Shown in pieces: positions 48,019 to 62,967 of a DNA stretch of 63,732 nucleotides (its first letter is position 1; each line of letters begins with the position of its first letter). The notes beneath the pieces were generated by a model. The model had not been told where the DNA came from, did no database searches, and was given only the letters and a program-made list of their open reading frames with translations. The stretch comes from a virus. The stretch is taken from positions 1 to 63,732 of the IMG/VR virus record IMGVR_UViG_3300036770_004125; one strand, written 5' to 3'. The translations under genes and the position numbers were made by a program.

Positions 48019-48138
48019 TCAGGAATCGTCCTTCTTTTTGTTATTCATCTGTGTCACTTTTGATTTATTATGTCCTGTTTTATTGCGCCGGAGACAGGAA
48101 TACCAACTCCCTCTTTTATAATAATCATAAGAACACAT
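48019..48138 (-). CDS. Tiny basic conserved cyanophage protein
   Basis: 39 aa, MCSYDYYKRGSWYSCLRRNK ... VTQMNNKKKDDS. The GSWYSCLRRN core is familiar from small cyanophage proteins. Two Cys and many basic residues, function unknown. No dyad upstream; it may be read with the 42-aa gene. Confidence 0.65.
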   Translation of the reverse strand: MCSYDYYKRGSWYSCLRRNKTGHNKSKVTQMNNKKKDDS

Positions 48139-48251
48139 AATGCATGTAAGAATCTTAATTCCTTATCAGATTGACTCTTTATCCCGTAGGAGAGTTCAAG
48201 TGCTGATGATAAGAATTATGAATTCTTATGATTTATTTATAAAATTATATC

Positions 48252-50552: not shown

Positions 50553-50576
50553 GCCCTATATAAAAAATCGTAGGGC
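50553..50576 (+). promoter_or_regulatory. Hairpin over HNH ribosome site with late-promoter-like loop
   Basis: GCCCTA (50553-50558) pairs with TAGGGC (50571-50576). The 12-nt loop begins TATAAAAA. The ribosome site AGGG (50572-50575), 7 nt from the ATG, is buried in the right arm. Confidence 0.6.
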
Positions 50577-50582
50577 AATCCA

Positions 50583-51119
50583 ATGAAAATAACATCACGG
50601 AAAGTATCAGAAATTGAAGGTCTAGAGAATTATAAAGACTACTTCGTTACAATTAAAGGAGAAGTCTATTCTTCAAAGTATAATAAGATTCGTAAGTTAA
50701 AACCTTGTTACCTTACTACAAAAGGTTCTTATCAGATTGTTCGTTTATCTGATGGTAAGGGTAAAACAAAGAACTTTTATGTACATAGACTCGTTGCACA
50801 ATTGTTCTTATTAAATGTAAATGAATCTTGGGCAGTAGAACATATCAATGGGGATCTTGAAGATAACTCTGTTGACAATCTAAGATGGGCAGGTAGAAAA
50901 ATATCTAAAGATTCTGATGAGTTGGATAGTGAAAGAATCTATCTTGGTGATGACATCAGTAATTACATTAAACTTGTTCATTCTGCCTCAGTGCAAAAGG
51001 GAATCCCAGTACCAGGAAAACTTGAGTTCTTTCATGGTATGATCAATCAGGCAATGGAAGATTATATTAACAGATTTGGTCTAAAGAAGACAATGTACCA
51101 GATAGAGCATTCTTCATGA
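50583..51119 (+). CDS. HNH homing endonuclease with NUMOD4-like region
   Basis: 178 aa, the only gene on the plus strand in the window. The N-terminal IEGLENYKDYFVTIKGEVYS resembles NUMOD4. The HNH core is FYVHRLVAQLFL (H68) and VEHINGDLEDNSVDNLRWA (H87, N95, N99). The C-terminal LEFFHGMINQAMEDYINRF is helical. Likely a free-standing homing endonuclease that cuts related phage genomes lacking it. Tail-to-tail overlap of 6 bp with the next gene, consistent with insertion of a selfish gene. Confidence 0.85.
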   Translation: MKITSRKVSEIEGLENYKDYFVTIKGEVYSSKYNKIRKLKPCYLTTKGSYQIVRLSDGKGKTKNFYVHRLVAQLFLLNVNESWAVEHINGDLEDNSVDNLRWAGRKISKDSDELDSERIYLGDDISNYIKLVHSASVQKGIPVPGKLEFFHGMINQAMEDYINRFGLKKTMYQIEHSS

Positions 51120-61171: not shown

Positions 61172-61338
61172 TCGTCAAATCCCTCAAGATACATCTTTCT
61201 CCAACCATAGCACATTTCTTCGTAGAAAGCAAGTCGGTCTATTTCAAGGAAGTATTCATCAGTACTGAAATCCAGACGAAACATAATCGCAAAGTAGATG
61301 CTATAAAATCCGTACATAAAGTTCTTGAGTTTTTTCAT
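61168..61338 (-). CDS. Small hypothetical protein
   Basis: 56 aa, MKKLKNFMYGFYSIYFAIMF then RLDFSTDEYFLEIDRLAFYE and MCYGWRKMYLEGFDE. A basic-aromatic N-terminal amphipathic or membrane-associated helix, then an acidic helical part. TAATG overlap with the 87-aa gene. Confidence 0.6.
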   Translation of the reverse strand: MKKLKNFMYGFYSIYFAIMFRLDFSTDEYFLEIDRLAFYEEMCYGWRKMYLEGFDE

Positions 61339-61601
61339 TATGTTCCTCTATAGTATGATAAGTCCATAGGGCACCGATAGTTTAGTAAATTTATATTCAA
61401 ACTAAGTAATGAAATATGGAGATAAAACGAAAACAAACTGCCATCAAAGATGCCAAATCCAAATCTAATATTCGGTTCCCAATCGCAATATACACTTGCG
61501 TGAAATGAAATATCAAATAAATTAAACTTCCTAAATTGACCTAAGATAAAATATATGTCTCTTCCATAATCGTATTCTGTATAAAAATCAAAGAGTTTCA
61601 T
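61338..61601 (-). CDS. Aromatic-rich conserved phage protein
   Basis: 87 aa, MKLFDFYTEYDYGRDIYFIL, rich in Phe/Tyr and beta-like (GFGIFDGSLFSFYLHISLLS). The YTEYDYGR-(D/E)-IYF start recurs in cyanophage small proteins. First gene of the seven-gene chain; promoter TATAAT with dyad above. Confidence 0.7.
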   Translation of the reverse strand: MKLFDFYTEYDYGRDIYFILGQFRKFNLFDISFHASVYCDWEPNIRFGFGIFDGSLFSFYLHISLLSLNINLLNYRCPMDLSYYRGT

Positions 61602-61638: not shown

Positions 61639-61698
61639 ATTATACTACAAAAGGCATTTGATTTCAAGTGCCCCTGTTCCAGTTTGTAAAGTGTCCTA
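61639..61698 (-). promoter_or_regulatory. Dyad promoter for the overlapping gene chain
   Basis: Dyad 61675-61698, 30 bp, TATAAT (61639-61644). Confidence 0.65.
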
Positions 61699-62634
61699 TT
61701 TCTTTTTAATCCTCCCTCTTACCCACCCATCACTAGGATACTCTACTCCTCTTTTCTCAATTTCTCCATTATTCCACCAAAGTTGCCCCTTCATTTTTTC
61801 TTTGTTCTTTTCTCTAATTTTTTGTTTCGTTTCTTCATTATGAGTTCTACCATAGAAAGAATTTTTTTCACCTTTTCTATCTTCACTCATTTTATTTTTG
61901 ACTTCATCAGTATGAGTTTTTCCATAAAATGGATTTTTATCACCAAGTTTTGCCAATCTTATATTTTCTATTGCTTTTTCTGTATGTTTTAATCCAAGAT
62001 TTCTAGTAAAATGACTTATATCTAACTCTAATTCTTTTATCCATTTGTTTATACAATCATAAACAATCTCACTTTTCATTCTTCTTGCAACTTCATTTTT
62101 ACTATGAGAAGTTTTAACTACATCAATAAACATTTCTCTAAAATCTAAATCGTGAATTTTTAGGTAAGTTCCCCTTCTTCTTCCTTTTCTGGTTTTACTC
62201 ATTTTATCTTTGGTTTCTTGAGATGCTTTTCTTCCCAAGTGCTTTTCTCTTATTTTTTGTTTCCTTTCTTCACTACAAGGAACACCATAACTTGGATTAT
62301 TTTCACCACCCATTCTTTCTTTCATATTATCAATATATCTTTTCCTCACTTGCTCGTATAAGTGAGAATTATACTTTTCACTACGATTTCTCATTAAGAA
62401 ACACGCAAGGTTCATTTTCTTTGTTCTTTCATCATCAATTCCATACCGTTTGATGCAAATTTTTTCCAATAATAAATGTGCGATATAGTGTTCTCTTGGA
62501 GTAAAAATAACAATTCTATCATTTTTACCGAAAATACTTTTTGGAAATGTATGATGCTTTTCTATGTAACCTTCAGGAGGAGTTCTATTCTCTGCTTTCC
62601 TTATGAGGTTACAATAAACCTTTAGATAATTCAT
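61696..62634 (-). CDS. HNH homing endonuclease with NUMOD3 repeats
   Basis: 312 aa. The N-terminal HNH-like core YIEKHHTFPKSIFG and TPREHYIAHLLLEKI (about 23-58; H27, H28, H49). Then repeated NUMOD3 units, GENNPSYGVPCSEERKQKI (about 110-128), GDKNPFYGKTHTDE and GEKNSFYGRTHNEE, with basic DNA-contact linkers, and a C-terminal LWWNNGEIEKRG segment. A free-standing homing endonuclease, probably mobile between phages. Lower GC than flanking genes. The upstream hairpin with a TATAAATA loop likely delays translation. Confidence 0.88.
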   Translation of the reverse strand: MNYLKVYCNLIRKAENRTPPEGYIEKHHTFPKSIFGKNDRIVIFTPREHYIAHLLLEKICIKRYGIDDERTKKMNLACFLMRNRSEKYNSHLYEQVRKRYIDNMKERMGGENNPSYGVPCSEERKQKIREKHLGRKASQETKDKMSKTRKGRRRGTYLKIHDLDFREMFIDVVKTSHSKNEVARRMKSEIVYDCINKWIKELELDISHFTRNLGLKHTEKAIENIRLAKLGDKNPFYGKTHTDEVKNKMSEDRKGEKNSFYGRTHNEETKQKIREKNKEKMKGQLWWNNGEIEKRGVEYPSDGWVRGRIKKK

Positions 62635-62659
62635 TTTTATTCTATTGAGAGTGCATAGG

Positions 62660-62667
62660 TATTTATA
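62660..62667 (-). promoter_or_regulatory. Perfect T4 late promoter TATAAATA
   Basis: Eight of eight matches, 25 bp upstream of the HNH ATG. Confidence 0.75.
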
Positions 62668-62670
62668 ATA

Positions 62671-62692
62671 GAAAAGGTGCCCGAAAGCACCT
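62671..62692 (-). terminator. Hairpin with TTTTC, probable terminator
   Basis: AGGTGC-TTTCGG-GCACCT then TTTTC on the minus strand, after the 77-aa gene. Confidence 0.6.
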
Positions 62693-62733
62693 AATCTTAC
62701 CTATGAAATTGCACTCTCAATAGGTGTAAGTAT

Positions 62734-62967
62734 TTAGTAATGATGCTCAGGAACAATCGTAGGTTCTTCTACATTTAGACCTTTCACATTTCCAGTATTA
62801 CAACTATAAAGTGTTGAAAGTTTCTTTCCTTTACAGACGATGTTGAAATGGTCTATTTGTCCGTTTGGGTGAGTAAAGGAAAACCAAACAGCATCATCTC
62901 CCATTACTTCATAATGAACGCTCACATTATCCAAGAAGAGTTCATCAACATTTTGTAGTTCGTTCAT
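62734..62967 (-). CDS. Small hypothetical protein
   Basis: 77 aa, MNELQNVDELFLDNVSVHYE then VWFSFTHPNGQIDHFNIVCK and EPTIVPEHHY. Beta-rich, acidic start. ATGA overlap with the 64-aa gene. Unrecognised. Confidence 0.6.
   Translation of the reverse strand: MNELQNVDELFLDNVSVHYEVMGDDAVWFSFTHPNGQIDHFNIVCKGKKLSTLYSCNTGNVKGLNVEEPTIVPEHHY

What the first reader, a model, noticed from the sequence alone, without database searches (positions are those of the whole stretch)
62642..62723. Second homing endonuclease with the same control layout, independent sequence
A perfect 14-bp inverted repeat encloses a perfect TATAAATA and a terminator hairpin directly before the HNH/NUMOD3 gene. Read-through RNA from upstream would be terminated or folded; late transcription from inside the loop would lack the pairing arm. 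Two unrelated endonuclease genes, on opposite strands, with convergent design in one window is striking.
Basis: partly seen in the sequence, partly recalled or inferred. Interest (0 to 1): 0.7.

Follow-up and report, generated by a model that had tools for sequence, protein, structure and literature searches.

The report
RNA brake on phage homing endonucleases
The inverted repeat is half of a small, mobile control unit that freshwater cyanophages place in front of several unrelated gene-cutting enzymes, and its layout suggests that a short RNA made from the unit blocks translation of the enzyme's own message.

Summary
The 14-bp arms, the TATAAATA and the terminator are all present, directly before an HNH/NUMOD3 gene on the minus strand. 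All 80 protein-found relatives of this gene have the two arms. In 73 of 80 an upstream late-type box (P1, NTAAATA) is there too; the usual order is P1, 6 nt, a small hairpin whose loop carries the 5' arm, intrinsic terminator, second late promoter (P2, TATAAATA), 3' arm, ATG. The arms covary strongly and tolerate G-U, so pairing acts in RNA. The same module precedes at least five enzyme families, up to nine times in one phage record. It moves with the cassette: absent from 4 empty-site relatives at the window's locus and 79 at a second locus. P1 and terminator occur together (137 of 137); P1 is lacking in 10 of 10 simpler leaders. Best explanation: the known I-TevI/mobE-type late gate, upgraded. 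Read-through RNA folds over the start site, the P2 transcript escapes, and P1 makes a ~50-nt RNA antisense to the P2 message. The cis gate is a known kind; the P1 antisense RNA is inferred, without RNA data. No Rfam family matched.

The parts
62731..62737 (-). P1: late-type promoter CTAAATA, 6 nt before hairpin 1; predicted RNA start near 62725
   Evidence: Located. TAAATA lies within 30 nt upstream of the 5' arm in 137 of 147 elements, against 1.6% of random 32-nt windows; spacing to hairpin 1 is 6 nt in 128 of 136. Cyanophage late consensus NATAAATA from PMC2984593, passages read. Start site inferred.
62699..62726 (-). Hairpin 1 (CCTAT/ATAGG, stem 62720-62724 with 62700-62704); its loop and 5' stem strand hold the 5' arm
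   Evidence: Located. Complement scoring at least 4.5 of 5 found in 95 of 126 dereplicated elements; mean 17.8, max 30, with another element's stem. Compensatory changes.
62710..62723 (-). 5' arm CTATTGAGAGTGCA (antisense to the start region of the P2 message)
62668..62692 (-). Intrinsic terminator AGGTGCTTTCGGGCACCT plus TTTTCTAT
   Evidence: Located; a terminator-like hairpin between 5' arm and P2 in 137 of 137 elements that have P1
62660..62667 (-). P2: late promoter TATAAATA; predicted RNA start near 62654
   Evidence: start site inferred
62642..62655 (-). 3' arm TGCACTCTCAATAG, 7 nt before the ATG
61696..62634 (-). HNH/NUMOD3 endonuclease gene, 312 aa, MobE-like
   Evidence: NUMOD3 E 4.9e-28; tblastn
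61696..62736 (-). Inserted cassette, P1 to the endonuclease stop codon
   Evidence: Compared with the empty-site relative L208 and with L207, which has another endonuclease at the same place

Best explanation
This is the control leader of a mobile endonuclease cassette of T4-like freshwater cyanophages. Two RNAs are made from two late promoters in tandem. P2, inside the repeat, starts the endonuclease message at the 3' arm; alone, that leader is unstructured and can be translated. Any RNA that starts upstream and reads through folds the 5' arm onto the 3' arm, 7 nt before the start codon, and is not translated (cis gate, as in I-TevI, segB and Aeh1 mobE). In addition P1 starts, 6 nt after its box, a short RNA of roughly 50-60 nt that consists of hairpin 1, presenting the 5' arm in its loop, and a terminator. 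That RNA can pair in trans with the 5' end of the P2 message and hold endonuclease synthesis down even at late times, each cassette with its own arm sequence. Shown by sequence: anatomy, covariation, G-U tolerance, P1-terminator linkage, mobility. Inferred: that P1 and P2 fire, where they start, that pairing blocks ribosomes, and that the P1 RNA acts in trans.
For: 80 of 80 protein-found relatives have the arms; 73 also have P1 and 7 do not. Arms covary: in 71 distinct rows the seven variable core pairs are 98.6% paired (469 Watson-Crick, 21 G-U, 7 unpaired) and all seven show compensatory changes, against at most 43.9% when slid and 55.7% (max 62.8%) when arms are dealt between elements. Independent count: covariation score 0.494 against 0.204 in shuffles (0 of 500 as high) and at most 0.147 when slid. 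G-U 21 against A-C 1 in the core, as expected for RNA and not for a DNA repeat. P1 and terminator go together: 137 with both; 10 without P1, of which 9 have no terminator-like hairpin and 1 has only a weak match. All 107 P1-hairpin-terminator units found are followed by a second promoter, 105 TATAAATA and 2 CTAAATA. Energies, 126 elements: read-through leader median -36.3, late leader 0.0, P1 RNA -21.4 kcal/mol. Cognate P1 RNA/leader duplex median -22.9 against -8.4 for non-cognate pairs in the same record; cognate is the strongest in 45 of 47.
Against: No RNA data: neither promoter, start site nor short RNA is shown. P1 is often weaker than P2 (NCTAAATA rather than NATAAATA in 33 of 126, counted). 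No copy of the P1 unit without an endonuclease was found, as a purely cis element would also give. Simpler leaders (classes B and C) do without P1 and terminator, so these are not needed for the cis gate. Arms within one record are not significantly more distinct than chance (7 of 176 cross pairs at score 20 or more; permutation P 0.057), and two cassettes of one record share the same arm. Several S-SRM01 nuclease genes with a late-type box have no arms, for example 14565, 122512, 209850 and 211986. Most covariation sets were entered on an arm score that penalises mismatches; in the set without that filter (22 rows) G-U is 6, A-C 1, other unpaired 2.
Confidence: 0.6

Rival explanations
1. Cis gate only: the arms sequester the start region in read-through RNA, P2 RNA escapes, the terminator is extra insulation, and P1 is a weak or unused box. 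No trans-acting RNA.
For: The same logic is established for I-TevI, I-TevII, I-TevIII, segB and Aeh1 mobE (PMC2988022 section 12). Classes B and C do it without P1. No orphan P1 units.
Against: Does not explain why P1 is present in 137 of 137 leaders with terminator and 0 of 10 simpler ones, its 6-nt spacing, or why hairpin 1, which competes with the long helix in cis, is kept by compensatory change.
Confidence: 0.35
2. The repeat is a DNA element: terminal repeat, recombination or endonuclease binding site (operator) for the cassette.
For: I-TevI represses its own late promoter by binding an operator there (PMC2988022 passages). The module is shared by cassettes that sit in different places.
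Against: Arm sequences vary freely while pairing is kept; G-U is tolerated and A-C is not; the same arm occurs with unrelated endonuclease families (12 of 62 arm cores); the arms are not at both cassette ends.
Confidence: 0.08
3. P1 and the repeat are host sequence at a preferred insertion site.
For: In the window P1's TAA also ends the upstream gene.
Against: Absent from 4 of 4 empty relatives at the window's site and from 79 of 79 at the DUF1825/SSB site. P1 is in frame as a stop in only some elements.
Confidence: 0.02

Closest known systems
I-TevI / I-TevII / I-TevIII, segB, Aeh1 mobE hairpin with internal late promoter (T4-like phages)
   Same: Late promoter inside an RNA hairpin that covers the endonuclease start region; late transcripts lack the upstream arm (PMC2988022, section 12 read; the original mobE papers were not held).
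   Different: Here there is a second late-type promoter upstream, a terminator in the loop and a separate hairpin presenting the 5' arm; the unit recurs before several endonuclease families; no strong Shine-Dalgarno sequence is seen in the arm.
T4 late genes soc, e, 49 and others under hairpin control
   Same: Same sequestering logic (soc, e named in PMC2988022; gene 49 from a reference title there). Two endonuclease VII genes of S-SRM01 have the simple form.
   Different: Not mobile cassettes; no P1-terminator unit.
CfrI antisense RNA of cyanophage S-PM2
   Same: Phage RNA linked to a homing endonuclease gene (PMC2984593 passages).
   Different: Runs antisense to the endonuclease gene and psbA, about 225 nt; no module match in S-PM2.
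Type I toxin-antitoxin and plasmid copy-control antisense RNAs (recalled)
   Same: Short structured RNA with a complementary loop, its own promoter and terminator, target leader next door.
   Different: Here target and antisense are in tandem on the same strand; no demonstration of a trans effect.

Membership tests
I-TevI-type late-gated hairpin leader | Stable RNA hairpin over the translation start in upstream-initiated RNA | tested here: met
   -40.4 kcal/mol, z -9.1, pairing ends 7 nt before ATG
I-TevI-type late-gated hairpin leader | Late promoter placed so that its RNA lacks the 5' arm | tested here: met
   TATAAATA 62660-62667 between the arms; leader from it folds at 0 kcal/mol. Start site not mapped.
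I-TevI-type late-gated hairpin leader | Reduced translation of early RNA, shown by experiment | not testable with these tools
   Needs reporter or infection data
MobE-like free-standing HNH homing endonuclease | Sequence similarity to the family and NUMOD3 repeats | tested here: met
   NUMOD3 E 4.9e-28; T6 MobE 28.8% identity. Pfam gave no HNH model hit for the window protein.
MobE-like free-standing HNH homing endonuclease | Occupied and empty sites in relatives | tested here: met
MobE-like free-standing HNH homing endonuclease | Cleavage of the empty site and homing | not testable with these tools
   No experiment
Antisense small RNA control | Own promoter and terminator for a short RNA complementary to the target leader | tested here: met
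   By sequence only; transcription not shown
Antisense small RNA control | RNA exists and acts in trans | not testable with these tools
   No RNA-seq of such a phage is held
Any Rfam 15 family | Match at gathering score | tested here: not met
   0 matches in 10 loci; only sub-threshold matches in the window region

The most novel reading that the evidence does not exclude
A portable antisense-RNA gene has become the standard control part of mobile endonucleases in freshwater cyanophages. Each cassette carries its own arm sequence as an address tag, so that a short late RNA silences the cassette's own endonuclease in trans; unrelated endonuclease families have acquired the same part.
Probability: 0.42. 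Interest if true: 0.78.

Novelty: new variant of a known kind. Interest (0 to 1): 0.62.

Why it matters
Late gating of homing endonucleases by an RNA hairpin is known from a handful of T4-like cases. Here one RNA part with strong covariation serves at least five enzyme families, so control and enzyme are exchanged as modules. If the P1 RNA is real, these selfish elements carry their own antisense brake, which would be a new class of phage small RNA and a compact, tag-specific expression switch. S-SRM01, an isolated phage with six copies, makes it directly testable.

Tried and rejected
Terminal repeat or operator reading: rejected because arms covary and tolerate G-U, and are not at both cassette ends. 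Host-sequence reading: rejected by empty sites at two loci. P1 as a mere stop codon: not general (frame counts 37/27/5 among long open frames, with 57 others short). Orthogonality of arms within a genome as evidence for trans action: only a trend (permutation P 0.057 and 0.072, none at the strictest threshold, P 0.615), so not used as proof. The B23/S-SRM01 phoH-exonuclease junction did not align cleanly and was dropped. A search for relatives of the downstream gene 61338-61601 found none, and none for the first endonuclease at 50583. Score thresholds (20, 23, 25) were chosen after seeing the distributions; at 23 or more there are 9 S-SRM01 genes, all annotated nucleases or members by eye of the enzyme families; between 19 and 22 there are six other genes with chance-like arms. 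Two elements at 20 or more precede genes that do not look like endonucleases (L007, 930 aa; L105 plus strand, 68 aa). Assignment of the families beginning SPRIY and HYTYYSYEEY to GIY-YIG-like enzymes is by eye; Pfam gave no nuclease hit for them.

Full report
What is there. On the minus strand, reading towards the gene, the order is: P1 box CTAAATA (62731-62737), six bases, hairpin 1 (62699-62726) with the 5' arm (62710-62723) in its loop and 5' strand, terminator (62668-62692), P2 box TATAAATA (62660-62667), 3' arm (62642-62655), seven bases, ATG of the 312-aa HNH/NUMOD3 gene (61696-62634). The perfect 14-bp repeat is beyond chance for the window. The window is a 63,732-base IMG/VR record with T4-like structural genes by inspection; the only phage matched by DNA with part of the region is freshwater Synechococcus phage S-SRM01.

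Relatives. A protein search in viral contigs gave 80 relatives of the endonuclease. Without any filter on the leader, 80 of 80 have the two arms at score 20 or more; 73 also have P1 and 7 do not. A DNA pattern of P2, GC of the arm and the bases before ATG gave 120 more stretches, with the scan stopped at its limit. Over 201 sequences there are 195 distinct TATAAATA sites before an open frame of 60 aa or more; 157 have arms at 20 or more, against 20 of 195 when the halves are dealt between elements. Ordinary late genes such as those beginning MDAQELRNLQEAY lack arms.

RNA-level selection. In 71 distinct rows with a fixed register the seven variable core pairs are paired in 98.6% of cells, with compensatory change at all seven; sliding gives at most 43.9% and dealing arms 55.7% on average. 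The tool's own count on 46 sequences agrees: hairpin 1 68.3%, long helix 93.7%, terminator 89.1% of cells paired, covariation score 0.494 against 0.204. Hairpin 1 is misaligned in part of that alignment, which lowers its figure; counted directly, 95 of 126 elements have a complement of 4.5 or better out of 5 against 17.8 on average with a foreign stem. Non-Watson-Crick core cells are 21 G-U, 1 A-C and 6 others; in a small set without arm-score filter, 6, 1 and 2. G-U is tolerated and A-C is not, which points to RNA of the coding strand. The strand CCTGT/CCTAT serves two exclusive helices: hairpin 1 and the outer end of the long helix.

P1 and the terminator. Of 147 elements with arms at 25 or more, 137 have TAAATA in the 30 nt upstream of the 5' arm (background 1.6%). 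A terminator-like hairpin is present in all 137; the other ten lack P1 and nine of them lack such a hairpin, the tenth having only a weak match. Spacing from TAAATA to hairpin 1 is 6 nt in 128 of 136 (the pattern allowed 4-9). The base before TAAATA is A in 86 and C in 33 of 126 elements (counted); NATAAATA is the published S-PM2 late consensus (PMC2984593, passages). A late promoter six bases before a hairpin and a terminator can, short of read-through, only make a short RNA, and the visible complement of that RNA is the leader of the P2 message. I take this as the main new point, and it is inference from anatomy.

Simpler relatives of the design. Class B (L009, L032-L037, L079, L148, S-SRM01 77663) presents the arm in a stem GTGGGCAGCAA/GTAAGNCCCAC without P1; class C (for example L105 minus strand, L097, and the two endonuclease VII genes of S-SRM01 at 126172 and 142306) is a plain repeat around TATAAATA. 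These match the published cis gate.

Modularity. The 126 dereplicated class A elements fall into five clusters by the first 100 residues of the enzyme plus one singleton; 12 of 62 arm cores occur with two or more clusters. Pfam: NUMOD3 in clusters 0, 1 and 2, GIY-YIG in cluster 2, a below-cutoff PD-(D/E)XK match for the singleton, no nuclease model for clusters 3 and 4 (one representative each). A covariance model finds 54 places in 18 of 25 records: six in S-SRM01, three in Synechococcus phage B23, up to nine in one IMG/VR record, none in S-CRM01, S-PM2, syn9, P-SSM2, S-RSM4 or T4. The 17 IMG/VR records were chosen because I already held loci from them, 16 of them with a module, so these numbers are not a census.

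Mobility. At the window's site the same 77-aa gene is followed in L202, L203, L204 and L208 by no module; in L207 by a module with another arm and an enzyme of another cluster; L205 and L206 continue differently. L208 and L207 fix the junctions: CATCGTTAT|TGAGGACACTTG empty, CATCRTTAC|TAAATA... to the stop codon followed by GGACACTT or GACACTT when occupied. At a second site, between DUF1825 and the single-stranded-DNA-binding protein gene, S-SRM01 and L351 carry the cassette and 79 of 80 fetched relatives do not; none of the 79 has TAAATA there. Between S-SRM01 and L351 the 3' arm differs by one base that turns a U-A pair into U-G, so pairing is kept.

Mechanism. The cis gate is well supported by analogy: the review of T4 mobile elements describes the same logic for I-TevI, I-TevII, I-TevIII, segB and Aeh1 mobE (PMC2988022, section 12 read). 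Energies agree over 126 elements: read-through leaders median -36.3, late leaders 0.0 kcal/mol. For trans action, the cognate duplex is the strongest in 45 of 47 elements that have company in their record, but this follows from the arms alone and does not prove trans pairing; distinctness within records is only a trend.

Known or not. No Rfam family matched. Literature searches on homing endonucleases with hairpins, late promoters, antisense or small RNAs, and cyanophages listed no paper that, by title and abstract start, describes such a module; in the S-SRM01 genome paper a term search found no mention of promoters, terminators or hairpins (PMC8557907, passages). Most subscription papers are not held, so absence from print is not shown.

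Noticed in passing
L009, L032-L037, L079, L148; S-SRM01 (L210) near 77663 of the record: Class B leaders: a conserved stem-loop GTGGGCAGCAA-arm-TTGYGTAAGNCCCAC, often followed by TTTTAT, before TATAAATA and the matching arm. The internal loop is conserved beyond pairing needs and may be a protein site or a combined terminator.
   Followed up: partly
L211:27173-27583 and L211:43307-43762 (S-SRM01 126172 and 142306): Two endonuclease VII genes have a plain inverted repeat around TATAAATA, like T4 gene 49 control (gene 49 recalled and seen as a reference title).
   Followed up: partly
L209:17940-18773; L351: At the DUF1825/SSB site the cassette sits between a TTGAC (-35-like) and TATAAT of the downstream gene, and the sequence at the cassette's 3' end supplies TTGACA and TATAAT again, as if it replaces the promoter it splits.
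   Followed up: partly
window 50557-50585: First endonuclease (HNH_3): TGCCCTA-tataaaaaatcg-TAGGGCA shortly before the ATG; 7-bp repeat around a non-consensus TATAAAAA; no relatives found.
   Followed up: partly
window 48114-48242: 28-nt imperfect (79%) inverted repeat whose right arm overlaps a TATAAATA at 48234-48241 on the minus strand.
   Followed up: no
L213:9379-11041 (S-SRM01 psbA): psbA is annotated in two parts around a putative endonuclease gene; the genome paper suggests an intron.
   Followed up: no
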